From Labia minor (Eukaryota > Arthropoda > Insecta > Dermaptera > Spongiphoridae): 64,000 nt of DNA. Location: positions 49,758,296-49,822,295 of the forward strand of contig OY720346.1 in assembly GCA_963082975.1 (NCBI GenBank). The letters are read 5' to 3'. Numbering within the stretch: the first letter of the stretch is position 1; every line of letters starts with the position of its first letter. Shown here piece by piece: positions 1 to 52,680 of the stretch. The position numbers were made by a program, and so were the translations under genes. Below the pieces are notes generated by a model. The model did no database searches. It worked only from the letters and a program-made list of their open reading frames with translations, and was not told where the DNA came from.

Positions 1-32
1 TGAGTACCTTATATGCGGTTTTCTCCGCCGAC

Positions 33-632
33 ATGTTCTTGAGTGATTGTAACGCTCCTGGCCTAGTAGGAAGTTTCTTCCAGACCATTGTTCACCTGCT
101 TGATGGAGTCGAAATGACACACTTATACAACATAGAGAATTACATAATGGGCAAGTATAAGGAAGTGTTCAAGATCCGGATTATCAGAGATGAGATGCGG
201 GCGTACAACAAGGCAATTGACTTCGTGTGCTCCAAAGACGCTAATGAGCATGGTTATATCAAGCTTCTTTATGACAAGACAGAGGCTGCTTGCCTCAATC
301 GAGGCAATTTCCGCATCTTGCCGATGGCGGCAACAATCCTCGCCCGTTACGAGAATTCCTCGATGACAAACTACATGGGCGCTCAAAGTGATGCTACCTA
401 TAAGATCTTAGAGGACTGCATCATGAGATACTTGTCTTCTAGGAACGCCTTGGCTCCAGTTGACATGATGCATTTTTCGTCTGCTCATTCAACACAGATA
501 GAAAGTGAGGAGATATCAAGGAGCTTCATCATCTCGTGGAGAGAGAAGGACAGTATCAAGGAATCAGGATCATGGAACATCGCATTTCCAAACCCTATGA
601 TACAAGCTCAGAACTCTCAGGTCCCCTCTTAG
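33..632 (+). pseudogene. N-like ORF2, unit 1 (class B, left-truncated)
   Basis: The unit's ATG would begin one base before the window, so the first visible Met is codon 12. E-type with Met142 and Trp192. Its ORF1 follows at 796-999, cut to 67 codons by the class B tract (about 926-992). Confidence 0.75.
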
Positions 633-795
633 GAGATAAGTAAAGTAGTGTTTTTTCAATTTGGGTGTCGGTTTTTAACTAAATTTAGGTACAGGTTTCC
701 TACCTGAGTATTTGTATTTTTAACTTTTAACTTAGAATTAAAAATAATAATTGTTTAATGTATTTATAAGAGCTTTCCTATAATACAAATAGATA
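633..795 (+). other. AT-rich spacer of the array (first example)
   Basis: This is the 163-bp non-coding stretch between the ORF2 stop and the ORF1 homology start, present in all class A and B units and absent from class C. It is A/T-rich, holds a short inverted repeat (AGGTA...TACCT) and ends in a pyrimidine-rich run before TTAG. Two sub-types differ at a few sites (GGGTGTCGG with AATGTATTTAT against GGGCGTCGG with AATGTAATTAT). I see no homology to the 3' flank of the divergent copies, so it may be host DNA or viral untranslated sequence. Confidence 0.7.
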
Positions 796-1168
796 GTGAA
801 CACTTTGAACATTTCTGGCTCTATGAGCAAGTTCTCTGCTGCTCTTGCTGAGATCCAGTATAATATCGTCTTCCAAGACCTGACAAACGAGGAGACAGCT
901 CAGCTCTTCCACTCTGAGCACTCAATAGAAAGTGAGGAGATATCAAGGAGCTTCATCATCTGGCGAGCAAGGATGAGGAGGACTCATTCTTCACGATGAG
1001 GGAGCAGCAATTGGTAGGCTTAGGAGTTTACTTCTTAATGATCGGGAAGAATTTACAAGCACAGGGTTACTCAGGGTGGATCAATAATAGACTGAGAACC
1101 TTTACACGAACCGCAGGTGTCTCTCAGAGATCAGTGTGGACTGAGAGGTCATTCGCCACACAGACAAC

Positions 1169-1801
1169 ATGAGTACCTTATATGCGGTTTTCTCCGCCGA
1201 CATGTTCTTGAGTGATTGTAACGCTCCTGGCCTAGTAGGAAGTTTCTTCCAGACCATTGTTCACCTGCTTGATGGAGTCGAAATGACACACTTATACAAC
1301 ATACAGAATTACATAATGGGTAAGTATAAGGAAGTGTTCAAGATCCGGATTATCAGAGATGAGATGCGGGCGTACAACAAGGCAATTGACTTCGTGTGCT
1401 CCGAAGACGCTAATGAGCATGGTTATATCAAGCTTCTTTATGACAAGACAGAGACTGCTTGCCTCAATCGAGGTAATTTCCGCATCTTGCCGATGGCGGC
1501 AACAATCCTCGCTCGTTACGAGAATTCCTTGATGACAAACTACATGGGCGCTCAAAGTGATGCTACCTATAAGATCTTAGAGGACTGCATCCTGAGATAC
1601 TTGTCTTCAAGGAACGCCTTGGCTCCAGTTGACATGATGCATTTTTCGTCTGCTCATTCAACACAGATAGAAAGTGAGGAGATATCAAGGAGCTTCATCA
1701 TCTCGTGGAGAGAGAAGGACAGTATCAAGGAATCAGGATCAGGGAACATCGCCTTTCCAAACCCTATGATACAAGCTCAGAACTCTCAGGTCCCCTCTTA
1801 G
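1169..1801 (+). pseudogene. N-like ORF2, unit 2 (class A)
   Basis: Q-type, full 210 codons. Following ORF1 at 1965-2324 has Asp42, Ser58, Asp69, Arg94 and reaches the ATGA overlap with unit 3. Confidence 0.75.
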
Positions 1802-2320
1802 GAGATAAGTAAAGTAGTGTTTTTTCAATTTGGGTGTCGGTTTTTAACTAAATTTAGGTACAGGTTTCCTACCTGAGTATTTGTATTTTTAACTTTTAAC
1901 TTAGAATTAAAAATAATAATTGTTTAATGTATTTATAAGAGCTTTCCTATAATACAAATAGATAGTGAACACTTTGAACATTTCTGGCTCTATGAGCAAG
2001 TTCTCTGCTGCTCTTGCTGAGATCCAGTATAATATCGTCTTCCAAGACCTGACAAACGAGGAGACAGCTCAGCTCTTCCACTCTGAGGACTCAAGAAAAT
2101 TCTGGGCGACCATGGCGAGCAAGGATGAGGAGGACTCATTGTTTACGATGAGGGAGCAGCAATTGGTAGACTTAGGAGTTTACTTCTTAATGATCGGGAA
2201 GAATTTACAAGCACAGGGTTACTCAGGGTGGATCAATAATAGACGGAGAACCTTTACACGAACCGCAGGTGTCTCTCAGAGATCAGTGTGGACTGAGAGG
2301 TCATTCGCCACACAGACAAC

Positions 2321-2953
2321 ATGAGTACCTTATATGCGGTTTTCTCCGCCGACATGTTCTTGAGTGATTGTAACGCTCCTGGCCTAGTAGGAAGTTTCTT
2401 CCAGACCATTGTTCACCTGCTTGATGGAGTCGAAATGACACACTTATACAACATAGAGAATTACATAATGGGCAAGTATAAGGAAGTGTTCAAGATCCGG
2501 ATTATCAGAGATGAGATGCGGGCGTACAACAAGGCAATTGACTTCGTGTGCTCCAAAGACGCTAATGAGCATGGTTATATCAAGCTTCTTTATGACAAGA
2601 CAGAGGCTGCTTGCCTCAATCGAGGCAATTTCCGCATCTTGCCGATGGCGGCAACAATCCTCGCCCGTTACGAGAATTCCTCGATGACAAACTACATGGG
2701 CGCTCAAAGTGATGCTACCTATAAGATCTTAGAGGACTGCATCCTGAGATACTTGTCTTCTAGGAACGCCTTGGCTCCAGTTGACATGATGCATTTTTCG
2801 TCTGCTCATTCAACACAGATAGAAAGTGAGGAGATATCAAGGAGCTTCATCATCTCGTGGAGAGAGAAGGACAGTATCAAGGAATCAGGATCATGGAACA
2901 TCGCCTTTCCAAACCCTATGATACAAGCTCAGAACTCTCAGGTCCCCTCTTAG
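2321..2953 (+). pseudogene. N-like ORF2, unit 3 (class A)
   Basis: E-type, 210 codons, Trp192. ORF1 at 3117-3476 has His42, Thr58, Gly69, Arg94. Twin of unit 38 (39,548). Confidence 0.75.
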
Positions 2954-3472
2954 GAGATAAGTAAAGTAGTGTTTTTTCAATTTGGGCGTCGGTTTTTAAC
3001 TAAATTTAGGTACAGGTTTCCTACCTGAGTATTTGTATTTTTAACTTTTAACTTAGAATTAAAAGTAATAATTGTTTAATGTAATTATAAGAGCTTTCCT
3101 ATAATACAAATAGATAGTGAACACTTTGAACATTTCTGGCTCTATGAGCAAGTTCTCTGCTGCTCTTGCTGAGATCCAGTATAATATCGTCTTCCAAGAC
3201 CTGACAAACGAGGAGACAGCTCAGCTCTTCCACTCTGAGCACTCAAGAAAATTCTGGGCGACCATGGCGAGCAAGGATGAGGAGGACACATTGTTTACGA
3301 TGAGGGAGCAGCAATTGGTAGGCTTAGGAGTTTACTTCTTAATGATCGGGAAGAATTTACAAGCACAGGGTTACTCAGGGTGGATCAATAATAGACGGAG
3401 AACCTTTACACGAACCGCAGGTGTCTCTCAGAGATCAGTGTGGACTGAGAGGTCATTCGCCACACAGACAAC

Positions 3473-4045
3473 ATGAGTACCTTATATGCGGTTTTCTCCG
3501 CCGACATGTTCTTGAGTGATTGTAACGCTCCTGGCCTAGTAGGAAGTTTCTTCCAGACCATTGTTCACCTGCTTGATGGAGTCGAAATGACACACTTATA
3601 CAACATAGAGAATTACATAATGGGTAAGTATAAGGAAGTGTTCAAGATCCGGATTATCAGAGATGAGATGCGGGCGTACAACAAGGCAATTGACTTCGTG
3701 TGCTCCAAAGACGCTAATGAGCATGGTTATATCAAGCTTCTTTATAACAAGACAGAGGCTGCTTGCCTCAATCGAGGCAATTTCCGCATCTTGCCGATGG
3801 CGGCAACAATCCTCGCCCGTTGCGAGAATTCCTCGATGACAAACTACATGGGCGCTCAAAGTGATGCTACCTATAAGATCTTAGAGGACTGCATCCTGAG
3901 ATACTTGTCTTCTAGGAACGCCTTGGCTCCAGTTGACATGATGCATTCTTCGTCTGCTCATTCAACACAGATAGAAAGTGAGGAGATATCAAGGAGCTTC
4001 ATCATCTGGCGAGCAAGGATGAGGAGGACTCATTCTTCACGATGA
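3473..4045 (+). pseudogene. N-like ORF2, unit 4 (class C fusion)
   Basis: 190 codons: after codon 178 the 410-bp deletion joins it out of frame to the distal half of ORF1, adding 12 foreign codons. Has Asn92, Ser159 and private Cys117 (shared only with 40,700). Confidence 0.75.
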
Positions 4046-4214
4046 GGGAGCAGCAATTGGTAGGCTTAGGAGTTTACTTCTTAATGACCGGGAAGAATTT
4101 ACAAGCACAGGGTTACTCAGGGTGGATCAATAATAGACTGAGAACATTTGCAGGAACCGCAGGTGTCATTCAGAGATCAGTGTGGGCTGAGAGGTCCTTC
4201 GCCCACAGACAGCA

Positions 4215-4787
4215 ATGAGTACCTTATATGCGGTTTTCTCCGCCGACATGTTCTTGAGTGATTGTAACGCTCCTGGCCTAGTAGGAAGTTTCTTCCAGAC
4301 CATTGTTCACCTGCTTGATGGAGTCGAAATGACACACTTATACAACATAGAGAATTACATAATGGGCAAGTATAAGGAAGTGTTCAAGAACCGGATTATC
4401 AGAGATGAGATGCGGGCGTACAACAAGGCAATTGACTTCGTGTGCTCCAAAGACGCTAATGAGCATGGTTATATCAAGCTTCTTTATAACAAGACAGAGG
4501 CTGCTTGCCTCAATCGAGGCAATTTCCGCATCTTGCCGATGGCGGCAACAATCCTCGCCCGTTACGAGAATTCCTCGATGACAAACTACATGGGCGCTCA
4601 AAGTGATGCTACCTATAAGATCTTAGAGGACTGCATCCTGAGATACTTGTCTTCTAGGAACGCCTTGGCTCCAGTTGACATGATGCATTCTTCGTCTGCT
4701 CATTCAACACAGATAGAAAGTGAGGAGATATCAAGGAGCTTCATCATCTGGCGAGCAAGGATGAGGAGGACTCATTCTTCACGATGA
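4215..4787 (+). pseudogene. N-like ORF2, unit 5 (class C fusion)
   Basis: 190 codons with the class C fusion tail. Asn92 and Ser159 plus Asn59, combining class C and Asn59-lineage markers. Two class C units in a row occur only here and at 40,700-42,183. Confidence 0.75.
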
Positions 4788-4956
4788 GGGAGCAGCAATT
4801 GGTAGGCTTAGGAGTTTACTTCTTAATGACCGGGAAGAATTTACAAGCACAGGGTTACTCAGGGTGGATCAATAATAGACTGAGAACATTTGCAGGAACC
4901 GCAGGTGTCATTCAGAGATCAGTGTGGGCTGAGAGGTCCTTCGCCCACAGACAGCA

Positions 4957-5589
4957 ATGAGTACCTTATATGCGGTTTTCTCCGCCGACATGTTCTTGAG
5001 TGATTGTAACGCTCCTGGCCTAGTAGGAAGTTTCTTCCAGACCATTGTTCACCTGCTTGATGGAGTCGAAATGACACACTTATACAACATAGAGAATTAC
5101 ATAATGGGCAAGTATAAGGAAGTGTTCAAGAACCGGATTATCAGAGATGAGATGCGGGCGTACAACAAGGAAATTGACTTCGTGTGCTCCAAAGACGCTA
5201 ATGAGCATGGTTATATCAAGCTTCTTTATGACAAGACAGAGGCTGCTTGCCTCAATCGAGGCAATTTCCGCATCTTGCCGATGGCGGCAACAATCCTCGC
5301 CCGTTACGAGAATTCCTCGATGACAAACTACATGGGCGCTCAAAGTGATGCTACCTATAAGATCTTAGAGGACTGCATCCTGAGATACTTGTCTTCTAGG
5401 AACGCCTTGGCTCCAGTTGACATGATGCATTTTTCGTCTGCTCATTCAACACAGATAGAAAGTGAGGAGATATCAAGGAGCTTCATCGTCTCGTGGAGAG
5501 AGAAGGACAGTATCAAGGAATCAGGATCAGGGAACATCGCCTTTCCAAACCCTATGATCCAAGCTCAGAACTCTCAGGTCCCCTCTTAG
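4957..5589 (+). pseudogene. N-like ORF2, unit 6 (class A)
   Basis: E-type, 210 codons, with Asn59, Glu72 and Val178. ORF1 at 5753-6112 (Asp42, Ser58, Asp69, Arg94). The spacer has GAGTAATAAATG, creating an AATAAA hexamer near 5,702. Confidence 0.75.
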
Positions 5590-6108
5590 GAGATAAGTAA
5601 AGTAGTGTTTTTTTAATTTGGGCGTCGGTTTTTAACTAAATTTAGGTACAGGTTTCCTACCTGAGTATTTGTATTTTTAACTTTTAACTTAGAATTAAGA
5701 GTAATAAATGTTTAATGTAATTATAAGAGCTTTCCTATAATACAAATAGATAGTGAACACTTTGAACATTTCTGGCTCTATGAGCAAGTTCTCTGCTGCT
5801 CTTGCTGAGATCCAGTATAATATCGTCTTCCAAGACCTGACAAACGAGGAGACAGCTCAGCTCTTCCACTCTGAGGACTCAAGAAAATTCTGGGCGACCA
5901 TGGCGAGCAAGGATGAGGAGGACTCATTGTTTACGATGAGGGAGCAGCAATTGGTAGACTTAGGAGTTTACTTCTTAATGATCGGGAAGAATTTACAAGC
6001 ACAGGGTTACTCAGGGTGGATCAATAATAGACGGAGAACCTTTACACGAACCGCAGGTGTCTCTCAGAGATCAGTGTGGACTGAGAGGTCATTCGCCACA
6101 CAGACAAC

Positions 6109-6741
6109 ATGAGTACCTTATATGCGGTTTTCTCCGCCGACATGTTCTTGAGTGATTGTAACGCTCCTGGCCTAGTAGGAAGTTTCTTCCAGACCATTGT
6201 TCACCTGCTTGATGGAGTCGAAATGACACACTTATACAACATAGAGAATTACATAATGGGCAAGTATAAGGAAGTGTTCAAGATCCGGATTATCAGAGAT
6301 GAGATGCGGGCGTACAACAAGGCAATTGACTTCGTGTGCTCCAAAGACGCTAATGAGCATGGTTATATCAAGCTTCTTTATGACAAGACAGAGGCTGCTT
6401 GCCTCAATCGAGGCAATTTCCGCATCTTGCCGATGGCGGCAACAATCCTCGCCCGTTACGAGAATTCCTCGATGACAAACTACATGGGCGCTCAAAGTGA
6501 TGCTACCTATAAGATCTTAGAGGACTGCATCCTGAGATACTTGTCTTCTAGGAACGCCTTGGCTCCAGTTGACATGATGCATTTTTCGTCTGCTCATTCA
6601 ACACAGATAGAAAGTGAGGAGATATCAAGGAGCTTCATCATCTCGTGGAGAGAGAAGGACAGTATCAAGAAATCAGGATCAGGGAACATCGCCTTTCCAA
6701 ACCCTATGATACAAGCTCAGAACTCTCAGGTCCCCTCTTAG
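6109..6741 (+). pseudogene. N-like ORF2, unit 7 (class A)
   Basis: E-type, 210 codons, Lys188. ORF1 at 6905-7264 has His42, Thr58, Gly69, Leu94 and Ala98-Gly99, a distal part resembling class C. Confidence 0.75.
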
Positions 6742-7260
6742 GAGATAAGTAAAGTAGTGTTTTTTCAATTTGGGCGTCGGTTTTTAACTAAATTTAGGTA
6801 CAGGTTTCCTACCTGAGTATTTGTATTTTTAACTTTTAACTTAGAATTAAAAGTAATAATTGTTTAATGTAATTATAAGAGCTTTCCTATAATACAAATA
6901 GATAGTGAACACTTTGAACATTTCTGGCTCTATGAGCAAGTTCTCTGCTGCTCTTGCTGAGATCCAGTATAATATCGTCTTCCAAGACCTGACAAACGAG
7001 GAGACAGCTCAGCTCTTCCACTCTGAGCACTCAAGAAAATTCTGGGCGACCATGGCGAGCAAGGATGAGGAGGACACATTGTTTACGATGAGGGAGCAGC
7101 AATTGGTAGGCTTAGGAGTTTACTTCTTAATGATCGGGAAGAATTTACAAGCACAGGGTTACTCAGGGTGGATCAATAATAGACTGAGAACCTTTGCAGG
7201 AACCGCAGGTGTCTCTCAGAGATCAGTGTGGACTGAGAGGTCCTTCGCCACACAGACAAC

Positions 7261-7779
7261 ATGAGTACCTTATATGCGGTTTTCTCCGCCGACATGTTCT
7301 TGAGTGATTGTAACGCTCCTGGCCTAGTAGGAAGTTTCTTGCAGACCATTGTTCACCTGCTTGATGGAGTCGAAATGACACACTTATACAACATAGAGAA
7401 TTACATAATGGGTAAGTATAAGGAAGTGTTCAAGATCCGGATTATCAGAGATGAGATGCGGGCGTACAACAAGGCAATTGACTTCGTGTGCTCCAAAGAC
7501 GCTAATGAGCATGGTTATATCAAGCTTCTTTATAACAAGACAGAGGCTGCTTGCCTCAATCGAGGCAATTTCCGCATCTTGCCGATGGCGGCAACAATCC
7601 TCGCCCGTTACGAGAATTCCTCGATGACAAACTACATGGGCGCTCAAAGTGATGCTACCTATAAGATCTTAGAGGACTGCATCCTGAGATACTTGTCTTC
7701 TAGGAACGCCTTGGCTCCAGTTGACATGATGCATTCTTCGTCTGCTCATTCAACACAGATAGAAAGTGAGGAGATATGA
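7261..7779 (+). pseudogene. N-like ORF2, unit 8 (class C, TGA-truncated)
   Basis: 172 codons: TCA at codon 173 has become TGA. The change also creates an ATGA stop-start with a 76-codon frame (7776-8006) covering the distal half of ORF1. Leu27, Asn92, Ser159. Confidence 0.75.
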
Positions 7780-8002
7780 AGGAGCTTCATCATCTGGCGA
7801 GCAAGGATGAGGAGGACTCATTCTTCACGATGAGGGAGCAGCAATTGGTAGGCTTAGGAGTTTACTTCTTAATGACCGGGAAGAATTTACAAGCACAGGG
7901 TTACTCAGGGTGGATCAATAATAGACTGAGAACATTTGCAGGAACCGCAGGTGTCATTCAGAGATCAGTGTGGGCTGAGAGGTCCTTCGCCCACAGACAG
8001 CA

Positions 8003-8635
8003 ATGAGTACCTTATATGCGGTTTTCTCCGCCGACATGTTCTTGAGTGATTGTAACGCTCCTGGCCTAGTAGGAAGTTTCTTCCAGACCATTGTTCACCT
8101 GCTTGATGGAGTCGAAATGACACACTTATACAACATAGAGAATTACATAATGGGCAAGTATAAGGAAGTGTTCAAGATCCGGATTATCAGAGATGAGATG
8201 CGGGCGTACAACAAGGCAATTGACTTCGTGTGCTCCAAAGACGCTAATGAGCATGGTTATATCAAGCTTCTTTATGACAAGACAGAGGCTGCTTGCCTCA
8301 ATCGAGGCAATTTCCGCATCTTGCCGATGGCGGCAACAATCCTCGCCCGTTACGAGAATTCCTCGATGACAAACTACATGGGCGCTCAAAGTGATGCTAC
8401 CTATAAGATCTTAGAGGACTGCATCCTGAGATACTTGTCTTCTAGGAACGCCTTGGCTCCAGTTGACATGATGCATTTTTCGTCTGCTCATTCAACACAG
8501 ATAGAAAGTGAGGAGATATCAAGGAGCTTCATCATCTCGTGGAGAGAGAAGGACAGTATCAAGGAATCAGGATCAGGGAACATCGCCTTTCCAAACCCTA
8601 TGATACAAGCTCAGAACTCTCAGGTCCCCTCTTAG
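8003..8635 (+). pseudogene. N-like ORF2, unit 9 (class B)
   Basis: E-type consensus, 210 codons. ORF1 at 8799-9002 is cut to 67 codons by the class B tract and has a Gly variant (RGRM) in the out-of-frame tail. Confidence 0.75.
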
Positions 8636-9171
8636 GAGATAAGTAAAGTAGTGTTTTTTCAATTTGGGCGTCGGTTTTTAACTAAATTTAGGTACAGGTT
8701 TCCTACCTGAGTATTTGTATTTTTAACTTTTAACTTAGAATTAAAAGTAATAATTGTTTAATGTAATTATAAGAGCTTTCCTATAATACAAATAGATAGT
8801 GAACACTTTGAACATTTCTGGCTCTATGAGCAAGTTCTCTGCTGCTCTTGCTGAGATCCAGTATAATATCGTCTTCCAAGACCTGACAAACGAGGAGACA
8901 GCTCAGCTCTTCCACTCTGAGCACTCAATAGAAAGTGAGGAGATATCAAGGAGCTTCATCATCTGGCGAGGAAGGATGAGGAGGACTCATTCTTCACGAT
9001 GAGGGAGCAGCAATTGGTAGGCTTAGGAGTTTACTTCTTAATGATCGGGAAGAATTTACAAGCACAGGGTTACTCAGGGTGGATCAATAATAGACTAAGA
9101 ACCTTTGCAGGAACCGCAGGTGTCTCTCAGAGATCAGTGTGGACTGAGAGGTCCTTCGCCACACAGACAAC

Positions 9172-9804
9172 ATGAGTACCTTATATGCGGTTTTCTCCGC
9201 CGACATGTTCTTGAGTGATTGTAACGCTCCTGGCCTAGTAGGAAGTTTCTTCCAGACCATTGTTCACCTGCTTGATGGAGTCGAAATGACACACTTATAC
9301 AACATACAGAATTACATAATGGGTAAGTATAAGGAAGTGTTCAAGATCCGGATTATCAGAGATGAGATGCGGGCGTACAACAAGGCAATTGACTTCGTGT
9401 GCTCCGAAGACGCTAATGAGCATGGTTATATCAAGCTTATTTATGACAAGACAGAGACTGCTTGCCTCAATCGAGGTAATTTCAGCATCTTGCCGATGGC
9501 GGCAACAATCCTCGCTCGTTACGAGAATTCCTTGATGACAAACTACATGGGCGCTCAAAGTGATGCTACCTATAAGATCTTAGAGGACTGCATCCTGAGA
9601 TACTTGTCTTCAAGGAACGCCTTGGCTCCAGTTGACATGATGCATTTTTCGTCTGCTCATTCAACACAGATAGAAAGTGAGGAGATATCAAGGAGCTTCA
9701 TCATCTCGTGGAGAGAGAAGGACAGTATCAAGGAATCAGGATCAGGGAACATCGCATTTCCAAACCCTATGATACAAGCTCAGAACTCTCAGGTCCCCTC
9801 TTAG
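9172..9804 (+). pseudogene. N-like ORF2, unit 10 (class A)
   Basis: Q-type, 210 codons, Ile90 and Ser105. ORF1 at 9968-10327 has private Val55 and Glu71. Confidence 0.75.
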
Positions 9805-10323
9805 GAGATAAGTAAAGTAGTGTTTTTTCAATTTGGGTGTCGGTTTTTAACTAAATTTAGGTACAGGTTTCCTACCTGAGTATTTGTATTTTTAACTTTT
9901 AACTTAGAATTAAAAATAATAATTGTTTAATGTATTTATAAGAGCTTTCCTATAATACAAATAGATAGTGAACACTTTGAACATTTCTGGCTCTATGAGC
10001 AAGTTCTCTGCTGCTCTTGCTGAGATCCAGTATAATATCGTCTTCCAAGACCTGACAAACGAGGAGACAGCTCAGCTCTTCCACTCTGAGGACTCAAGAA
10101 AATTCTGGGCGACCATGGCGAGCAAGGATGTGGAGGACACATTGTTTACGATGAGGGAGCAGCAATTGGTAGACTTAGAAGTTTACTTCTTAATGATCGG
10201 GAAGAATTTACAAGCACAGGGTTACTCAGGGTGGATCAATAATAGACGGAGAACCTTTACACGAACCGCAGGTGTCTCTCAGAGATCAGTGTGGACTGAG
10301 AGGTCATTCGCCACACAGACAAC

Positions 10324-10956
10324 ATGAGTACCTTATATGCGGTTTTCTCCGCCGACATGTTCTTGAGTGATTGTTACGCTCCTGGCCTAGTAGGAAGTTT
10401 CTTCCAGACCATTGTTCACCTGCTTGATGGAGTCGAAATGACACACTTATACAACATAGAGAATTACATAATGGGCAAGTATAAGGAAGTGTTCAAGATC
10501 CGGATTATCAGAGATGAGATGCGGGCGTACAACAAGGCAATTGACTTCGTGTGCTCCAAAGACGCTAATGAGCATGGTTATATCAAGCTTCTTTATGACA
10601 AGACAGAGGCTGCTTGCCTCAATCGAGGCAATTTCCGCATCTTGCCGATGGCGGCAACAATCCTCGCCCGTTACGAGAATTCCTCGATGACAAACTACAT
10701 GGGCGCTCAAAGTGATGCTACCTATAAGATCTTAGAGGACTGCATCATGAGATACTTGTCTTCTAGGAACGCCTTGGCTCCAGTTGACATGATGCATTTT
10801 TCGTCTGCTCATTCAACACAGATAGAAAGTGAGGAGATATCAAGGAGCTTCATCATCTCGTGGAGAGAGAAGGACAGTATCAAGGAATCAGGATCAGGGA
10901 ACATCGCCTTTCCAAACCCTATGATACAAGCTCAGAACTCTCAGGTCCCCTCTTAG
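10324..10956 (+). pseudogene. N-like ORF2, unit 11 (class B)
   Basis: E-type, 210 codons, Tyr18 and Met142, Gly192. ORF1 at 11120-11323 (67 codons). Confidence 0.75.
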
Positions 10957-11492
10957 GAGATAAGTAAAGTAGTGTTTTTTTAATTTGGGCGTCGGTTTTT
11001 AACTAAATTTAGGTACAGGTTTCCTACCTGAGTATTTGTATTTTTAACTTTTAACTTAGAATTAAAAGTAATAATTGTTTAATGTAATTATAAGAGCTTT
11101 CCTATAATACAAATAGATAGTGAACACTTTGAACATTTCTGGCTCTATGAGCAAGTTCTCTGCTGCTCTTGCTGAGATCCAGTATAATATCGTCTTCCAA
11201 GACCTGACAAACGAGGAGACAGCTCAGCTCTTCCACTCTGAGCACTCAATAGAAAGTGAGGAGATATCAAGGAGCTTCATCATCTGGCGAGCAAGGATGA
11301 GGAGGACTCATTCTTCACGATGAGGGAGCAGCAATTGGTAGGCTTAGGAGTTTACTTCTTAATGATCGGGAAGAATTTACAAGCACAGGGTTACTCAGGG
11401 TGGATCAATAATAGACGGAGAACCTTTACACGAACCGCAGGTGTCTCTCAGAGATCAGTGTGGACTGAGAGGTCATTCGCCACACAGACAAC

Positions 11493-12125
11493 ATGAGTAC
11501 CTTATATGCGGTTTTCTCCGCCGACATGTTCTTGAGTGATTGTAACGCTCCTGGCCTAGTAGGAAGTTTCTTCCAGACCATTGTTCACCTGCTTGATGGA
11601 GTCGAAATGACACACTTATACAACATAGAGAATTACATAATGGGCAAGTATAAGGAAGTGTTCAAGATCCGGATTATCAGAGATGAGATGCGGGCGTACA
11701 ACAAGGCAATTGACTTCGTGTGCTCCAAAGACGCTAATGAGCATGGTTATATCAAGCTTCTTTATGACAAGACAGAGGCTGCTTGCCTCAATCGAGGCAA
11801 TTTCCGCATCTTGCCGATGGCGGCAACAATCCTCGCCCGTTACGAGAATTCCTCGATGACAAACTACATGGGCGCTCAAAGTGATGCTACCTATAAGATC
11901 TTAGAGGACTGCATCCTGAGATACTTGTCTTCTAGGAACGCCTTGGCTCCAGTTGACATGATGCATTTTTCGTCTGCTCATTCAACACAGATAGAAAGTG
12001 AGGAGATATCAAGGAGCTTCATCATCTCGTGGAGAGAGAAGGACAGTATCAAGGAATCAGGATCAGGGAACATCGCCTTTCCAAACCCTATGATACAAGC
12101 TCAGAACTCTCAGGTCCCCTCTTAG
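11493..12125 (+). pseudogene. N-like ORF2, unit 12 (class B)
   Basis: E-type consensus, 210 codons. ORF1 at 12289-12492 (67 codons). Confidence 0.75.
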
Positions 12126-12661
12126 GAGATAAGTAAAGTAGTGTTTTTTTAATTTGGGCGTCGGTTTTTAACTAAATTTAGGTACAGGTTTCCTACCTGA
12201 GTATTTGTATTTTTAACTTTTAACTTAGAATTAAAAGTAATAATTGTTTAATGTAATTATAAGAGCTTTCCTATAATACAAATAGATAGTGAACACTTTG
12301 AACATTTCTGGCTCTATGAGCAAGTTCTCTGCTGCTCTTGCTGAGATCCAGTATAATATCGTCTTCCAAGACCTGACAAACGAGGAGACAGCTCAGCTCT
12401 TCCACTCTGAGCACTCAATAGAAAGTGAGGAGATATCAAGGAGCTTCATCATCTGGCGAGCAAGGATGAGGAGGACTCATTCTTCACGATGAGGGAGCAG
12501 CAATTGGTAGGCTTAGGAGTTTACTTCTTAATGATCGGGAAGAATTTACAAGCACAGGGTTACTCAGGGTGGATCAATAATAGACGGAGAACCTTTACAC
12601 GAACCGCAGGTGTCTCTCAGAGATCAGTGTGGACTGAGAGGTCATTCGCCACACAGACAAC

Positions 12662-13294
12662 ATGAGTACCTTATATGCGGTTTTCTCCGCCGACATGTTC
12701 TTGAGTGATTGTAACGCTCCTGGCCTAGTAGGAAGTTTCTTCCAGACCATTGTTCACCTGCTTGATGGAGTCGAAATGACACACTTATACAACATAGAGA
12801 ATTACATAATGGGCAAGTATAAGGAAGTGTTCAAGATCCGGATTATCAGAGATGAGATGCGGGCGTACAACAAGGCAATTGACTTCGTGTGCTCCAAAGA
12901 CGCTAATGAGCATGGTAATATCAAGCTTCTTTATGACAAGACAGAGGCTGCTTGCCTCAATCGAGGCAATTTCCGCATCTTGCCGATGGCGGCAACAATC
13001 CTCGCCCGTTACGAGAATTCCTCGATGACAAACTACATGGGCGCTCAAAGTGATGCTACCTATAAGATCTTAGAGGACTGCATCCTGAGATACTTGTCTT
13101 CTAGGAACGCCTTGGCTCCAGTTGACATGATGCATTTTTCGTCTGCTCATTCAACACAGATAGAAAGTGAGGAGATATCAAGGAGCTTCATCATCTCGTG
13201 GAGAGAGAAGGACAGTATCAAGGAATCAGGATCAGGGAACATCGCATTTCCAAACCCTATGATACAAGCTCAGAACTCTCAGGTCCCCTCTTAG
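12662..13294 (+). pseudogene. N-like ORF2, unit 13 (class A)
   Basis: E-type, 210 codons, private Asn86 (shared with 21,519). ORF1 at 13458-13817 (Asp42, Ser58, Asp69, Arg94). Confidence 0.75.
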
Positions 13295-13813
13295 GAGATA
13301 AGTAAAGTAGTGTTTTTTCAATTTGGGTGTCGGTTTTTAACTAAATTTAGGTACAGGTTTCCTACCTGAGTATTTGTATTTTTAACTTTTAACTTAGAAT
13401 TAAAAATAATAATTGTTTAATGTATTTATAAGAGCTTTCCTATAATACAAATAGATAGTGAACACTTTGAACATTTCTGGCTCTATGAGCAAGTTCTCTG
13501 CTGCTCTTGCTGAGATCCAGTATAATATCGTCTTCCAAGACCTGACAAACGAGGAGACAGCTCAGCTCTTCCACTCTGAGGACTCAAGAAAATTCTGGGC
13601 GACCATGGCGAGCAAGGATGAGGAGGACTCATTGTTTACGATGAGGGAGCAGCAATTGGTAGACTTAGGAGTTTACTTCTTAATGATCGGGAAGAATTTA
13701 CAAGCACAGGGTTACTCAGGGTGGATCAATAATAGACGGAGAACCTTTACACGAACCGCAGGTGTCTCTCAGAGATCAGTGTGGACTGAGAGGTCATTCG
13801 CCACACAGACAAC

Positions 13814-42014: not shown

Positions 42015-42183
42015 GGGAGCAGCAATTGGTAGGCTTAGGAGTTTACTTCTTAATGACCGGGAAGAATTTACAAGCACAGGGTTACTCAGGGTGGATCAAT
42101 AATAGACTGAGAACATTTGCAGGAACCGCAGGTGTCATTCAGAGATCAGTGTGGGCTGAGAGGTCCTTCGCCCACAGACAGCA

Positions 42184-42816
42184 ATGAGTACCTTATATGC
42201 GGTTTTCTCCGCCGACATGTTCTTGAGTGATTGTAACGCTCCTGGCCTAGTAGGAAGTTTCTTCCAGACCATTGTTCACCTGCTTGATGGAGTCGAAATG
42301 ACACACTTATACAACATAGAGAATTACATAATGGGCAAGTATAAGGAAGTGTTCAAGAACCGGATTATCAGAGATGAGATGCGGGCGTACAACAAGGAAA
42401 TTGACTTCGTGTGCTCCAAAGACGCTAATGAGCATGGTTATATCAAGCTTCTTTATGACAAGACAGAGGCTGCTTGCCTCAATCGAGGCAATTTCCGCAT
42501 CTTGCCGATGGCGGCAACAATCCTCGCCCGTTACGAGAATTCCTCGATGACAAACTACATGGGCGCTCAAAGTGATGCTACCTATAAGATCTTAGAGGAC
42601 TGCATCCTGAGATACTTGTCTTCTAGGAACGCCTTGGCTCCAGTTGACATGATGCATTTTTCGTCTGCTCATTCAACACAGATAGAAAGTGAGGAGATAT
42701 CAAGGAGCTTCATCGTCTCGTGGAGAGAGAAGGACAGTATCAAGGAATCAGGATCAGGGAACATCGCCTTTCCAAACCCTATGATCCAAGCTCAGAACTC
42801 TCAGGTCCCCTCTTAG
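42184..42816 (+). pseudogene. N-like ORF2, unit 41 (class A)
   Basis: Asn59, Glu72, Val178, twin of unit 6. ORF1 at 42980-43339. Confidence 0.75.
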
Positions 42817-43335
42817 GAGATAAGTAAAGTAGTGTTTTTTTAATTTGGGCGTCGGTTTTTAACTAAATTTAGGTACAGGTTTCCTACCTGAGTATTTGTA
42901 TTTTTAACTTTTAACTTAGAATTAAGAGTAATAAATGTTTAATGTAATTATAAGAGCTTTCCTATAATACAAATAGATAGTGAACACTTTGAACATTTCT
43001 GGCTCTATGAGCAAGTTCTCTGCTGCTCTTGCTGAGATCCAGTATAATATCGTCTTCCAAGACCTGACAAACGAGGAGACAGCTCAGCTCTTCCACTCTG
43101 AGGACTCAAGAAAATTCTGGGCGACCATGGCGAGCAAGGATGAGGAGGACTCATTGTTTACGATGAGGGAGCAGCAATTGGTAGACTTAGGAGTTTACTT
43201 CTTAATGATCGGGAAGAATTTACAAGCACAGGGTTACTCAGGGTGGATCAATAATAGACGGAGAACCTTTACACGAACCGCAGGTGTCTCTCAGAGATCA
43301 GTGTGGACTGAGAGGTCATTCGCCACACAGACAAC

Positions 43336-43968
43336 ATGAGTACCTTATATGCGGTTTTCTCCGCCGACATGTTCTTGAGTGATTGTAACGCTCCTGGCCT
43401 AGTAGGAAGTTTCTTCCAGACCATTGTTCACCTGCTTGATGGAGTCGAAATGACACACTTATACAACATAGAGAATTACATAATGGGCAAGTATAAGGAA
43501 GTGTTCAAGATCCGGATTATCAGAGATGAGATGCGGGCGTACAACAAGGCAATTGACTTCGTGTGCTCCAAAGACGCTAATGAGCATGGTTATATCAAGC
43601 TTCTTTATGACAAGACAGAGGCTGCTTGCCTCAATCGAGGCAATTTCCGCATCTTGCCGATGGCGGCAACAATCCTCGCCCGTTACGAGAATTCCTCGAT
43701 GACAAACTACATGGGCGCTCAAAGTGATGCTACCTATAAGATCTTAGAGGACTGCATCCTGAGATACTTGTCTTCTAGGAACGCCTTGGCTCCAGTTGAC
43801 ATGATGCATTTTTCGTCTGCTCATTCAACACAGATAGAAAGTGAGGAGATATCAAGGAGCTTCATCATCTCGTGGAGAGAGAAGGACAGTATCAAGAAAT
43901 CAGGATCAGGGAACATCGCCTTTCCAAACCCTATGATACAAGCTCAGAACTCTCAGGTCCCCTCTTAG
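43336..43968 (+). pseudogene. N-like ORF2, unit 42 (class A)
   Basis: E-type with Lys188, twin of unit 7. ORF1 at 44132-44491 (Leu94, Ala98-Gly99). Confidence 0.75.
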
Positions 43969-44487
43969 GAGATAAGTAAAGTAGTGTTTTTTCAATTTGG
44001 GCGTCGGTTTTTAACTAAATTTAGGTACAGGTTTCCTACCTGAGTATTTGTATTTTTAACTTTTAACTTAGAATTAAAAGTAATAATTGTTTAATGTAAT
44101 TATAAGAGCTTTCCTATAATACAAATAGATAGTGAACACTTTGAACATTTCTGGCTCTATGAGCAAGTTCTCTGCTGCTCTTGCTGAGATCCAGTATAAT
44201 ATCGTCTTCCAAGACCTGACAAACGAGGAGACAGCTCAGCTCTTCCACTCTGAGCACTCAAGAAAATTCTGGGCGACCATGGCGAGCAAGGATGAGGAGG
44301 ACACATTGTTTACGATGAGGGAGCAGCAATTGGTAGGCTTAGGAGTTTACTTCTTAATGATCGGGAAGAATTTACAAGCACAGGGTTACTCAGGGTGGAT
44401 CAATAATAGACTGAGAACCTTTGCAGGAACCGCAGGTGTCTCTCAGAGATCAGTGTGGACTGAGAGGTCCTTCGCCACACAGACAAC

Positions 44488-45006
44488 ATGAGTACCTTAT
44501 ATGCGGTTTTCTCCGCCGACATGTTCTTGAGTGATTGTAACGCTCCTGGCCTAGTAGGAAGTTTCTTGCAGACCATTGTTCACCTGCTTGATGGAGTCGA
44601 AATGACACACTTATACAACATAGAGAATTACATAATGGGTAAGTATAAGGAAGTGTTCAAGATCCGGATTATCAGAGATGAGATGCGGGCGTACAACAAG
44701 GCAATTGACTTCGTGTGCTCCAAAGACGCTAATGAGCATGGTTATATCAAGCTTCTTTATAACAAGACAGAGGCTGCTTGCCTCAATCGAGGCAATTTCC
44801 GCATCTTGCCGATGGCGGCAACAATCCTCGCCCGTTACGAGAATTCCTCGATGACAAACTACATGGGCGCTCAAAGTGATGCTACCTATAAGATCTTAGA
44901 GGACTGCATCCTGAGATACTTGTCTTCTAGGAACGCCTTGGCTCCAGTTGACATGATGCATTCTTCGTCTGCTCATTCAACACAGATAGAAAGTGAGGAG
45001 ATATGA
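44488..45006 (+). pseudogene. N-like ORF2, unit 43 (class C, TGA-truncated)
   Basis: 172 codons, third copy with TGA at codon 173 (with units 8 and 16). The distal ORF1 frame is 45003-45233. Confidence 0.75.
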
Positions 45007-45229
45007 AGGAGCTTCATCATCTGGCGAGCAAGGATGAGGAGGACTCATTCTTCACGATGAGGGAGCAGCAATTGGTAGGCTTAGGAGTTTACTTCTTAAT
45101 GACCGGGAAGAATTTACAAGCACAGGGTTACTCAGGGTGGATCAATAATAGACTGAGAACATTTGCAGGAACCGCAGGTGTCATTCAGAGATCAGTGTGG
45201 GCTGAGAGGTCCTTCGCCCACAGACAGCA

Positions 45230-45862
45230 ATGAGTACCTTATATGCGGTTTTCTCCGCCGACATGTTCTTGAGTGATTGTAACGCTCCTGGCCTAGTAGG
45301 AAGTTTCTTCCAGACCATTGTTCACCTGCTTGATGGAGTCGAAATGACACACTTATACAACATAGAGAATTACATAATGGGCAAGTATAAGGAAGTGTTC
45401 AAGATCCGGATTATCAGAGATGAGATGCGGGCGTACAACAAGGCAATTGACTTCGTGTGCTCCAAAGACGCTAATGAGCATGGTTATATCAAGCTTCTTT
45501 ATGACAAGACAGAGGCTGCTTGCCTCAATCGAGGCAATTTCCGCATCTTGCCGATGGCGGCAACAATCCTCGCCCGTTACGAGAATTCCTCGATGACAAA
45601 CTACATGGGCGCTCAAAGTGATGCTACCTATAAGATCTTAGAGGACTGCATCCTGAGATACTTGTCTTCTAGGAACGCCTTGGCTCCAGTTGACATGATG
45701 CATTTTTCGTCTGCTCATTCAACACAGATAGAAAGTGAGGAGATATCAAGGAGCTTCATCATCTCGTGGAGAGAGAAGGACAGTATCAAGGAATCAGGAT
45801 CAGGGAACATCGCCTTTCCAAACCCTATGATACAAGCTCAGAACTCTCAGGTCCCCTCTTAG
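45230..45862 (+). pseudogene. N-like ORF2, unit 44 (class B)
   Basis: E-type consensus, 210 codons. ORF1 at 46026-46229, RGRM tail. Confidence 0.75.
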
Positions 45863-46398
45863 GAGATAAGTAAAGTAGTGTTTTTTCAATTTGGGCGTCG
45901 GTTTTTAACTAAATTTAGGTACAGGTTTCCTACCTGAGTATTTGTATTTTTAACTTTTAACTTAGAATTAAAAGTAATAATTGTTTAATGTAATTATAAG
46001 AGCTTTCCTATAATACAAATAGATAGTGAACACTTTGAACATTTCTGGCTCTATGAGCAAGTTCTCTGCTGCTCTTGCTGAGATCCAGTATAATATCGTC
46101 TTCCAAGACCTGACAAACGAGGAGACAGCTCAGCTCTTCCACTCTGAGCACTCAATAGAAAGTGAGGAGATATCAAGGAGCTTCATCATCTGGCGAGGAA
46201 GGATGAGGAGGACTCATTCTTCACGATGAGGGAGCAGCAATTGGTAGGCTTAGGAGTTTACTTCTTAATGATCGGGAAGAATTTACAAGCACAGGGTTAC
46301 TCAGGGTGGATCAATAATAGACTAAGAACCTTTGCAGGAACCGCAGGTGTCTCTCAGAGATCAGTGTGGACTGAGAGGTCCTTCGCCACACAGACAAC

Positions 46399-47031
46399 AT
46401 GAGTACCTTATATGCGGTTTTCTCCGCCGACATGTTCTTGAGTGATTGTAACGCTCCTGGCCTAGTAGGAAGTTTCTTCCAGACCATTGTTCACCTGCTT
46501 GATGGAGTCGAAATGACACACTTATACAACATACAGAATTACATAATGGGTAAGTATAAGGAAGTGTTCAAGATCCGGATTATCAGAGATGAGATGCGGG
46601 CGTACAACAAGGCAATTGACTTCGTGTGCTCCGAAGACGCTAATGAGCATGGTTATATCAAGCTTATTTATGACAAGACAGAGACTGCTTGCCTCAATCG
46701 AGGTAATTTCAGCATCTTGCCGATGGCGGCAACAATCCTCGCTCGTTACGAGAATTCCTTGATGACAAACTACATGGGCGCTCAAAGTGATGCTACCTAT
46801 AAGATCTTAGAGGACTGCATCCTGAGATACTTGTCTTCAAGGAACGCCTTGGCTCCAGTTGACATGATGCATTTTTCGTCTGCTCATTCAACACAGATAG
46901 AAAGTGAGGAGATATCAAGGAGCTTCATCATCTCGTGGAGAGAGAAGGACAGTATCAAGGAATCAGGATCAGGGAACATCGCATTTCCAAACCCTATGAT
47001 ACAAGCTCAGAACTCTCAGGTCCCCTCTTAG
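46399..47031 (+). pseudogene. N-like ORF2, unit 45 (class A)
   Basis: Q-type with Ile90 and Ser105. ORF1 at 47195-47554 with Val55 and Glu71. Confidence 0.75.
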
Positions 47032-47550
47032 GAGATAAGTAAAGTAGTGTTTTTTCAATTTGGGTGTCGGTTTTTAACTAAATTTAGGTACAGGTTTCCT
47101 ACCTGAGTATTTGTATTTTTAACTTTTAACTTAGAATTAAAAATAATAATTGTTTAATGTATTTATAAGAGCTTTCCTATAATACAAATAGATAGTGAAC
47201 ACTTTGAACATTTCTGGCTCTATGAGCAAGTTCTCTGCTGCTCTTGCTGAGATCCAGTATAATATCGTCTTCCAAGACCTGACAAACGAGGAGACAGCTC
47301 AGCTCTTCCACTCTGAGGACTCAAGAAAATTCTGGGCGACCATGGCGAGCAAGGATGTGGAGGACACATTGTTTACGATGAGGGAGCAGCAATTGGTAGA
47401 CTTAGAAGTTTACTTCTTAATGATCGGGAAGAATTTACAAGCACAGGGTTACTCAGGGTGGATCAATAATAGACGGAGAACCTTTACACGAACCGCAGGT
47501 GTCTCTCAGAGATCAGTGTGGACTGAGAGGTCATTCGCCACACAGACAAC

Positions 47551-50444: not shown

Positions 50445-50613
50445 GGGAGCAGCAATTGGTAGGCTTAGGAGTTTACTTCTTAATGACCGGGAAGAATTTA
50501 CAAGCACAGGGTTACTCAGGGTGGATCAATAATAGACTGAGAACATTTGCAGGAACCGCAGGTGTCATTCAGAGATCAGTGTGGGCTGAGAGGTCCTTCG
50601 CCCACAGACAGCA

Positions 50614-51246
50614 ATGAGTACCTTATATGCGGTTTTCTCCGCCGACATGTTCTTGAGTGATTGTAACGCTCCTGGCCTAGTAGGAAGTTTCTTCCAGACC
50701 ATTGTTCACCTGCTTGATGGAGTCGAAATGACACACTTATACAACATAGAGAATTACATAATGGGCAAGTATAAGGAAGTGTTCAAGAACCGGATTATCA
50801 GAGATGAGATGCGGGCGTACAACAAGGAAATTGACTTCGTGTGCTCCAAAGACGCTAATGAGCATGGTTATATCAAGCTTCTTTATGACAAGACAGAGGC
50901 TGCTTGCCTCAATCGAGGCAATTTCCGCATCTTGCCGATGGCGGCAACAATCCTCGCCCGTTACGAGAATTCCTCGATGACAAACTACATGGGCGCTCAA
51001 AGTGATGCTACCTATAAGATCTTAGAGGACTGCATCCTGAGATACTTGTCTTCTAGGAACGCCTTGGCTCCAGTTGACATGATGCATTTTTCGTCTGCTC
51101 ATTCAACACAGATAGAAAGTGAGGAGATATCAAGGAGCTTCATCGTCTCGTGGAGAGAGAAGGACAGTATCAAGGAATCAGGATCAGGGAACATCGCCTT
51201 TCCAAACCCTATGATACAAGCTCAGAACTCTCAGGTCCCCTCTTAG
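50614..51246 (+). pseudogene. N-like ORF2, unit 49 (class B)
   Basis: Asn59, Glu72, Val178, like units 6 and 41 but followed by a class B ORF1 at 51410-51613. Confidence 0.75.
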
Positions 51247-51782
51247 GAGATAAGTAAAGTAGTGTTTTTTTAATTTGGGCGTCGGTTTTTAACTAAATTT
51301 AGGTACAGGTTTCCTACCTGAGTATTTGTATTTTTAACTTTTAACTTAGAATTAAGAGTAATAATTGTTTAATGTAATTATAAGAGCTTTCCTATAATAC
51401 AAATAGATAGTGAACACTTTGAACATTTCTGGCTCTATGAGCAAGTTCTCTGCTGCTCTTGCTGAGATCCAGTATAATATCGTCTTCCAAGACCTGACAA
51501 ACGAGGAGACAGCTCAGCTCTTCCACTCTGAGCACTCAATAGAAAGTGAGGAGATATCAAGGAGCTTCATCATCTGGCGAGCAAGGATGAGGAGGACTCA
51601 TTCTTCACGATGAGGGAGCAGCAATTGGTAGGCTTAGGAGTTTACTTCTTAATGATCGGGAAGAATTTACAAGCACAGGGTTACTCAGGGTGGATCAATA
51701 ATAGACGGAGAACCTTTACACGAACCGCAGGTGTCTCTCAGAGATCAGTGTGGACTGAGAGGTCATTCGCCACACAGACAAC

Positions 51783-52415
51783 ATGAGTACCTTATATGCG
51801 GTTTTCTCCGCCGACATGTTCTTGAGTGATTGTAACGCTCCTGGCCTAGTAGGAAGTTTCTTCCAGACCATTGTTCACCTGCTTGATGGAGTCGAAATGA
51901 CACACTTATACAACATACAGAATTACATAATGGGTAAGTATAAGGAAGTGTTCAAGATCCGGATTATCAGAGATGAGATGCGGGCGTACAACAAGGCAAT
52001 TGACTTCGTGTGCTCCGAAGACGCTAATGAGCATGGTTATATCAAGCTTCTTTATGACAAGACAGAGACTGCTTGCCTCAATCGAGGTAATTTCCGCATC
52101 TTGCCGATGGCGGCAACAATCCTCGCTCGTTACGAGAATTCCTTGATGACAAACTACATGGGCGCTCAAAGTGATGCTACCTATAAGATCTTAGAGGACT
52201 GCATCCTGAGATACTTGTCTTCAAGGAACGCCTTGGCTACAGTTGACATGATGCATTTTTCGTCTGCTCATTCAACACAGATAGAAAGTGAGGAGATATC
52301 AAGGAGCTTCATCATCTCGTGGAGAGAGAAGGACAGTATCAAGGAATCAGGATCAGGGAACATCGCATTTCCAAACCCTATGATACAAGCTCAGAACTCT
52401 CAGGTCCCCTCTTAG
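51783..52415 (+). pseudogene. N-like ORF2, unit 50 (last copy)
   Basis: Q-type with private Thr153, 210 codons. It is followed by a complete spacer and then only about 90 bases of ORF1 (from 52,579) before the array stops at 52,665. Confidence 0.75.
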
Positions 52416-52660
52416 GAGATAAGTAAAGTAGTGTTTTTTCAATTTGGGTGTCGGTTTTTAACTAAATTTAGGTACAGGTTTCCTACCTGAGTATTTGTAT
52501 TTTTAACTTTTAACTTAGAATTAAAAATAATAATTGTTTAATGTATTTATAAGAGCTTTCCTATAATACAAATAGATAGTGAACACTTTGAACATTTCTG
52601 GCTCTATGAGCAAGTTCTCTGCTGCTCTTGCTGAGATCCAGTATAATATCGTCTTCCAAG

Positions 52661-52680
52661 ACCTGACAAGGACGATGGGT
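52661..52680 (+). other. Junction between the two arrays (ACAA microhomology)
   Basis: ORF1 runs as far as ...GACCTGACAA and the sequence then continues as ...ACAAGGACGATGGG, which recurs at 56,833 and 61,000. The ACAA at 52,666-52,669 belongs to both sides, so about 4 bp of homology lies at the join. Confidence 0.85.

What the first reader, a model, noticed from the sequence alone, without database searches (positions are those of the whole stretch)
1..52665. A virus-like gene fragment turned into a 50-copy satellite array
At least 51.8 kb of head-to-tail copies of a truncated virus-like coding fragment with only three unit lengths. Endogenous RNA-virus fragments are usually single or few copies; one amplified like satellite DNA is unusual. 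The array runs off the left edge, so it is larger still.
Basis: partly seen in the sequence, partly recalled or inferred. Interest (0 to 1): 0.87.

Follow-up and report, generated by a model that had tools for sequence, protein, structure and literature searches.

The report
Virus-gene fragments amplified into satellite DNA
An animal chromosome carries a roughly 279-kilobase block of head-to-tail copies of a broken gene fragment that most likely came from a negative-strand RNA virus, suggesting that captured RNA-virus genes can become satellite DNA.

Summary
Window 1-52665 has 50 same-strand, head-to-tail unit starts with exactly three spacings: 1152 (22), 1169 (15) and 742 bp (12). In the chromosome the array spans about 278.6 kb, is bordered on both sides by a 4167-bp repeat, and has an inverted second site 12.4 Mb away.

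The fragment has no sequence match in any library searched, so "nucleoprotein" is inferred. Viral origin rests on neighbours: the 4167-bp unit holds a diverged copy of the gene and a Mononegavirales polymerase piece (E 1.6e-5, below cut-off), and 1.6-3.3 kb beyond the window lie polymerase pieces, best E 1.3e-32. An intact 431-aa relative sits on C1: 290 of 328 compared residues agree with the array while synonymous codons agree no more than by chance, fitting separate captures of related viruses.

The lengths are explained: 1169-bp units carry a 37-bp duplication 427 bp apart, and 1169 - 427 = 742. Identical 6-9-unit blocks recur. ORF2 variants look neutral (6 synonymous, 24 non-synonymous). 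Best reading: an EVE-derived satellite spread by unequal exchange, with no shown function.

The parts
1..52665 (+). Array of head-to-tail N-like units (50 starts; 1152/1169/742 bp), right-hand end of a ~279-kb array
2321..3472 (+). Example 1152-bp unit
2321..2953 (+). ORF2, 210 aa: C-terminal half of the N-like protein (full length in 78 of 80 1152-bp and 69 of 69 1169-bp units of the region read)
2954..3113 (+). A+T-rich spacer between the N-like 3' end and the truncated 5' end of the next copy; weakly alike to the 3' flank of the C1 relative (score 70; 1 of 200 shuffles reached it), not to that of the two other copies tried (39, 37)
3114..3476 (+). ORF1, 120 aa stop to stop, middle part of the N-like protein, out of frame with the next ORF2; shortened by the patch in 1169-bp units
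8003..9171 (+). Example 1169-bp unit
8501..8537 (+). 37-bp patch, native copy in ORF2
8928..8964 (+). Second copy of the 37-bp patch inside ORF1 of a 1169-bp unit, 427 bp downstream of the first
3473..4214 (+). Example 742-bp unit: ORF2 joined to ORF1 through the patch (1169 - 427 = 742); same joint in 12 of 12 742-bp units of the window
2321..10323 (+). Eight-unit block repeated identically at 39548-47550
6109..13813 (+). Seven-unit block repeated identically at 14966-22670
52666..64000 (+). Second tandem array, period 4167 bp, 2.72 copies in the window, 3 mismatches at lag 4167; the same unit borders the far left end of the N-like array
52920..54154 (+). Diverged, broken copy of the same N-like gene inside the 4167-bp unit (repeated at +4167 and +8334)
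55987..56220 (+). Piece of a Mononegavirales L (RNA polymerase) gene inside the 4167-bp unit
   Evidence: PF00946 E 1.6e-5, 23.3 bits, below the 27-bit cut-off; PDB matches to L polymerases not significant (5chs E 0.15, 5a22 E 0.27); not listed in the whole-genome scan at E<=0.01
54606..54791 (+). IS1595/Merlin-type transposase domain piece
   Evidence: PF12762 E 3.7e-9
55233..55439 (+). IS1595/Merlin-type transposase domain piece, second copy
   Evidence: PF12762 E 1.7e-11; relatives

Best explanation
A cDNA of the nucleoprotein-like gene of a Mononegavirales-type virus was captured in the germ line of an animal (probably an arthropod), beside older captured pieces of related viruses in a transposon-rich repeat. 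A 5'-truncated copy was tandemised and then spread by repeated unequal exchange and gene conversion into a satellite-like array of about 279 kb. A 37-bp internal duplication marks the 1169-bp form, and recombination between two such patches accounts for the length of the 742-bp form. The array now drifts as non-coding satellite DNA; no function is shown. SHOWN: the array, its extent, the unit classes and their arithmetic, recurring identical multi-unit blocks, the nearby L-gene pieces, strong past protein-level constraint, and neutral-looking variation since. INFERRED: that the gene is N, that it entered by reverse transcription, the order in which the unit classes arose, and that unequal exchange did the amplification.
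For: Array and classes. Exact 37-bp repeat at lag 427 in 12 of 14 complete 1169-bp units of the window (33 bp in the other 2), nothing over 5 bp at lags 427 or 410 in the 22 1152-bp units; 1169 - 427 = 742, and 12 of 12 742-bp units show the matching joint. Blocks of 6-9 identical units at distances of 8.9-133 kb; 69 distinct sequences among 209 units. Viral neighbourhood: L piece in the 4167-bp unit; L pieces at C4:49823865-49825553, 1.6-3.3 kb right of the window, E 1.3e-32, 1.3e-31 and 4.4e-6, 0 of 14 control genomes ringing; GDNQ in one open piece (motif recalled); Pfam E 3.2e-19 to 4.2e-9 for 4 of 7 open pieces. At E<=0.01 PF00946 rang at two clusters in 604 Mb, one of them here. Past constraint: against the 4167-bp copy pS 0.92, pN 0.16 over 209 codons; against the C1 relative pN 0.062 over 328 codons with synonymous sites saturated, 84 of 273 degenerate same-residue codons identical where 94 are expected by chance. 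Present neutrality: 6 synonymous to 24 non-synonymous variants in the first 165 codons of 196 units, 73% non-synonymous expected, p 0.54.
Against: Nothing searched gave a homologue of the N-like protein: Pfam, PDB, IMG/VR, Rhabdo_ncap in the whole genome (0 hits, but no control rang either). IMG/VR gave no relative of the L piece either and no L motif, so its silence says little. The in-window L piece is below the Pfam cut-off. The AlphaFold model of ORF2 was useless (pLDDT 34.4). The 742-bp class has variants of its own: its left 530 bp differ from the nearest 1169-bp unit at 2-8 positions and a 170-bp stretch of its right part at 6; the simulated 427-bp deletion differs at 21 or more positions in an ungapped comparison whose last bases are partly out of register. 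It is therefore not a fresh deletion of the present 1169-bp units.
Confidence: 0.78

Rival explanations
1. A host gene family (or a gene of a cellular mobile element), not a virus gene, one truncated member of which was tandemised; the L pieces nearby are a coincidence.
For: No viral homologue found; several related copies in the genome, one with an intact 431-aa frame; protein-level constraint would also fit a host gene.
Against: Intronless; no Pfam family at E<=10; polymerase pieces of a virus order lie in the same 4167-bp unit and 1.6-3.3 kb beyond the window although only two clusters were listed in 604 Mb; fully randomised synonymous codons with 290 of 328 residues identical fit fast-evolving virus lineages better than recent host paralogues.
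Confidence: 0.13
2. The captured gene has been kept and amplified as an antiviral locus (source of piRNA/siRNA, or of a truncated decoy nucleoprotein).
For: ORF2 is open at full length in 147 of 149 1152- and 1169-bp units of the region read; at least 210 same-strand copies; decoy action of virus-derived proteins and piRNA action of EVEs are discussed in PMC6166632 (passages).
Against: Variants in ORF2 look neutral; with 0.3-1.2% mean divergence few stops are expected anyway; no expression or small-RNA data; orientation relative to transcription unknown.
Confidence: 0.1
3. Assembly artefact: a short array expanded by the assembler.
For: Identical multi-unit blocks up to 9.6 kb are the kind of repeat that confuses assemblers; no reads available.
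Against: 65 distinct sequences among 196 main-class units, class-specific variants, defined left and right borders and a second site at C4:62.24-62.25 Mb are hard to get by mis-assembly; copy number may still be off.
Confidence: 0.05
4. Amplification began by rolling-circle copying of an excised circle and reinsertion, rather than by in-place unequal exchange (compatible with the best explanation in all other respects).
For: Abrupt borders at both ends inside the same 4167-bp repeat, with about 319 bp of that repeat present on both sides; an inverted second site 12.4 Mb away.
Against: Mixed unit classes and block duplications at many distances demand later exchange in any case; only 2.5 kb of the second site were read.
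Confidence: 0.3

Closest known systems
Endogenous geminivirus repeats: yam EGV1 and Nicotiana GRD elements (PMC5014472, passages)
   Same: Truncated virus gene as direct repeats in a nuclear genome; the EGV1 arrays are estimated there as possibly exceeding 23 kb, and GRD5, GRD53 and GRD3 are described as clustered multiple direct repeats
   Different: Single-stranded DNA virus, plant hosts; here an RNA-virus type of gene and an array about twelve times that estimate
Rearranged IHHNV EVE of black tiger shrimp (PMC8982415, passages)
   Same: Repeated EVE units (blocks of 6 and 4 x 661 bp) between host repeats in an arthropod
   Different: DNA parvovirus (recalled), few units, inverted order; here over two hundred units in one orientation
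Satellite DNAs derived from transposons (review PMC12628747, passages)
   Same: Two-stage origin (short tandem, then expansion), composite monomers from transposon-rich places
   Different: Monomer comes from a virus-like gene; words beginning with virus or viral have 0 occurrences in that review
Mononegavirales EVEs of crustaceans (PMC4573495, passages)
   Same: Nucleocapsid- and polymerase-like pieces of this order in arthropod genomes
   Different: The 12 of 22 passages seen describe no array; the word 'copies' has 0 occurrences in the text

Membership tests
Satellite DNA | Long head-to-tail array of near-identical units | tested here: met
   210 starts in 222,661 bp, all + strand; 98.8-99.6% within class in the window
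Satellite DNA | Concerted evolution (shared variants, block duplications) | tested here: met
   69 distinct of 209 units; identical 6-9-unit blocks
Satellite DNA | Heterochromatic location | not testable with these tools
   No chromatin or FISH data
Endogenous element of Mononegavirales | Protein homology of the array unit to a viral protein | tested here: not met
   No hit in Pfam, PDB, IMG/VR or the protein collection; the unit is called N-like by inference only. The 431-aa relative was not run against the protein collection
Endogenous element of Mononegavirales | L polymerase homology in the same locus | tested here: met
   PF00946 at C4:49823865-49825553, best E 1.3e-32; 4 of 7 open pieces E 3.2e-19 to 4.2e-9; the in-window piece E 1.6e-5 is below cut-off
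Endogenous element of Mononegavirales | Past purifying selection as protein | tested here: met
   pN 0.062 with saturated synonymous sites, 328 codons
Rhabdoviridae nucleoprotein (PF00945) | Profile match | tested here: not met
   0 matches in the whole genome at E<=1; controls did not ring either, so weak evidence; no Pfam hit of the 431-aa relative
   Whole-Pfam scans gave nothing relevant; no reference N set of these families was available
Merlin/IS1595 transposon (name Merlin recalled) | IS1595-type DDE transposase domain | tested here: met
   PF12762 E 1.7e-11 and 3.7e-9; 27 relatives, the 5 that bear an organism name are arthropods
Merlin/IS1595 transposon (name Merlin recalled) | Terminal inverted repeats and target duplications | tested here: inconclusive
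   Inverted-repeat scan of 52500-57000 listed 22 pairs, none taken as a terminal pair; target duplications not tested; copies are fragments

The most novel reading that the evidence does not exclude
The host has built a dedicated, copy-number-amplified locus out of a captured RNA-virus nucleoprotein gene, serving as heritable antiviral memory (small RNAs or decoy protein), with an intact diverged relative elsewhere kept as a working gene.
Probability: 0.1. Interest if true: 0.88.

Novelty: new variant of a known kind. Interest (0 to 1): 0.63.

Why it matters
It joins two processes usually treated apart: capture of non-retroviral RNA-virus genes, and birth of satellite DNA. Tandem EVE arrays are documented for DNA viruses; a long array from a gene of a negative-strand RNA-virus type did not turn up in my ten paper searches, which cover only an open-licence library and depend on wording. 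Unit classes whose lengths are related by simple arithmetic make the recombination history partly readable, and the locus gives a direct place to ask whether amplified EVEs feed small-RNA defence.

Tried and rejected
Structure route: AlphaFold on ORF2 with six rows from the window gave pLDDT 34.4, so no fold search was run. Homology routes that gave nothing for the N-like protein: Pfam on ORF1/ORF2 and alignment members (DUF1397, best E 0.019, below cut-off, rejected), PDB (the ATR-interacting-protein and nitroreductase rows, E 0.14 and above, taken as chance), protein collection (0 of 51 and 0 of 2392 candidates at E<=10), IMG/VR, prokaryote contigs, phages. The L piece found no relative in IMG/VR, and a scan for Mononegavirales L motifs there found 0. 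The host species was not identified; a telomere-repeat search did not complete. That 742-bp units are fresh deletions of the present 1169-bp units was considered and not kept. The syn/non-syn count (87:298) was discarded because units of other lengths were out of register; 13 of 209 units were dropped. In one search, 3 of 7 pieces gave no PF00946 match.
Full report
OBSERVATION. The window begins inside and ends beyond an array of head-to-tail units. A unit-start marker occurs 50 times on the + strand with 49 spacings: 1152 bp (22), 1169 bp (15) and 742 bp (12), nothing else. The array stops at 52665; from 52666 the sequence repeats with a period of 4167 bp and three mismatches at that lag to the window's end. 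Mean pairwise identity is 98.8% (1152), 99.4% (1169) and 99.6% (742). Tandem Repeats Finder did not report the array; its longest period is 500.

EXTENT. The window is C4:49758296-49822295 of a 604-Mb, 71-contig genome. Reading 293,987 contiguous bases around it gave 210 unit starts over 222,661 bp of array, all in one orientation, with a few further lengths (770 x6, 1179 x5, 769 x1, 1921 x1). Probes and one 7.1-kb read place the left border at about C4:49532399, so the array is about 278,562 bp, or roughly 263 units by extrapolation; of the leftmost 56 kb only parts were read, the rest being covered by listed ORF2 hits. The left border again joins the 4167-bp repeat: one full copy at 99.6% and its first 319 bp, then the array. 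So the N-like array lies inside a 4167-bp repeat block, with about 319 bp of that repeat present on both sides. A further site with three listed ORF2 copies (99%) lies at C4:62.242-62.249 Mb on the other strand; the 2.5 kb read there are rearranged array units. Only 150 of 300 candidates were scored.

ANATOMY OF THE UNIT. A unit holds ORF2 (210 aa), an A+T-rich spacer of about 160 bp, and ORF1 (120 aa stop to stop), which runs out of frame into the next ORF2. In 1169-bp units ORF1 is cut short by the patch described below (stop-free 66 residues against 117). Alignment with a 431-aa open frame on C1 (L050) shows that ORF1 and ORF2 are the middle and C-terminal parts of one protein: the array copy starts at about residue 93 of the relative, lacks a short internal stretch, and is broken by a frame shift between ORF1 and ORF2. 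The relative is intronless and complete; I describe it and propose nothing further with it than searches.

THE THREE LENGTHS. In 12 of the 14 complete 1169-bp units of the window an exact 37-bp repeat occurs at lag 427 (33 bp in the other 2); the 22 1152-bp units have nothing longer than 5 bp at lags 427 or 410. The patch is a copy of ORF2 sequence lying in ORF1. In 12 of 12 742-bp units ORF2 is joined to ORF1 at the patch, and 1169 - 427 = 742. Recombination between two patch copies thus explains the short class. Against a fresh deletion: 742-bp units have variants of their own, differing from the nearest 1169-bp unit at 2-8 of the left 530 and at 6 of 170 positions on the right; the simulated product differs at 21 or more positions ungapped, part of them in end bases that are out of register. 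The order of events is open.

HOW THE ARRAY GREW. Of 209 units read, 69 are distinct, and runs of 6-9 units recur identically at distances of 8.9 to 133 kb; in the window an eight-unit block at 2321 recurs at 39548 and a seven-unit block at 6109 recurs at 14966. This is what unequal exchange or block-wise conversion leaves. Among 196 units of the three main classes (13 of other lengths dropped), the first 165 codons of ORF2 show 6 synonymous and 24 non-synonymous variants and no stop; 73% non-synonymous is the neutral expectation (p 0.54). Further on, 2 of 80 1152-bp units stop at 188 aa and 5 of 47 742-bp units at 172 aa. The array has drifted as non-coding DNA, as far as this test can see.

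WHAT THE GENE IS. Viral contigs gave no relative of the L piece either, so their silence says little. The evidence for a virus is contextual and evolutionary. First, the 4167-bp unit holds a diverged copy of the same gene at 52920-54154 and, 1.8 kb further on, a piece matching the Mononegavirales polymerase (PF00946, E 1.6e-5, 23.3 bits, below the 27-bit cut-off), with L polymerases as best, but not significant, PDB matches (5chs E 0.15; vesicular stomatitis virus L, 5a22, E 0.27). Second, 1.6-3.3 kb beyond the window three further polymerase pieces reach E 1.3e-32, 1.3e-31 and 4.4e-6; of seven open pieces searched one by one, four match, at E 3.2e-19, 4.8e-16, 1.8e-10 and 4.2e-9, one with GDNQ (recalled as the polymerase signature of the order). 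One piece's PDB matches are L proteins in 23 of 24 rows, best E 1.5e-4; another's are weak, L first at E 0.014 and then unrelated chains. At E<=0.01 PF00946 rings in two clusters of the genome, here and at C2:55.83 Mb, and in none of 14 control genomes; the in-window piece itself is not in that list. Third, the gene evolved as a protein before amplification: array against the 4167-bp copy, pS 0.92 and pN 0.16 over 209 codons; array against the C1 frame, pN 0.062 over 328 codons, with 84 of 273 degenerate same-residue codons identical where 94 are expected by chance. Synonymous sites are randomised while 290 of 328 residues agree. Related but separate virus lineages captured at different times explain this most simply; an old host gene family is the rival.

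OTHER COPIES. A search with the N-terminal piece found, besides four 4167-bp copies, four more that carry this part: C4:58.539 and 58.542 Mb (open frames of 302 aa), C1:68.772 Mb (284 aa) and C1:68.794 Mb (436 aa stop to stop, 431 from its first ATG) (150 of 212 candidates scored).

SURROUNDINGS. The 4167-bp unit is a patchwork: IS1595-type transposase pieces (PF12762), which to my reading have intron-like interruptions, the N-like copy and the L piece. Of 27 transposase relatives the five that bear an organism name are from ant, spider, firefly, bagworm and longhorn beetle, which suggests an arthropod host; the species was not identified.

COMPARISON. Tandem arrays of captured viruses are known for DNA viruses: yam EGV1, which may exceed 23 kb, and Nicotiana GRD (PMC5014472, passages), and the rearranged IHHNV EVE of shrimp with blocks of 6 and 4 units (PMC8982415, passages). 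Mononegavirales EVEs are known from crustaceans (PMC4573495, passages). Satellites born from transposons are reviewed in PMC12628747 (passages). Antiviral roles of captured RNA-virus genes are discussed in PMC6166632 (passages). Ten searches of the open-licence library turned up no report of a satellite from a non-retroviral RNA-virus gene; apart from the five papers named, only listings were seen, and subscription papers are mostly not held.

VERDICT. The viral reading is likely but rests on neighbours and evolution, not on a direct match. It is a new variant of a known kind: an EVE-derived satellite, from an RNA-virus type of gene and of unusual length.

Noticed in passing
L050 (C1:68792700-68794500): An intact 431-aa intronless relative of the array gene, no Pfam domain; possible domesticated EVE or recent capture
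   Followed up: partly
L034, L037, L038, L040, L041 (C2:55827158-55832447): A second cluster of Mononegavirales L-gene pieces (best E 4.5e-57) on another contig
   Followed up: no
L003 1543-3330: L-gene pieces right of the window lie in rearranged order among transposase pieces; a stretch like the piece at PF00946 positions 334-401 appears a second time, shortened, at 1355-1597
   Followed up: partly
C4:62242200-62250900 (L049 = 62248401-62250900): Second, inverted site of the same unit 12.4 Mb away
   Followed up: partly
   Followed up: no
54198-54244 and repeats at +4167, +8334: 10-bp tandem repeat ATACAATGTA, 4.7 copies, in each 4167-bp unit
   Followed up: no
55743-55955: Open frame of Gly-rich character between transposase and L piece, origin unknown
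   Followed up: no
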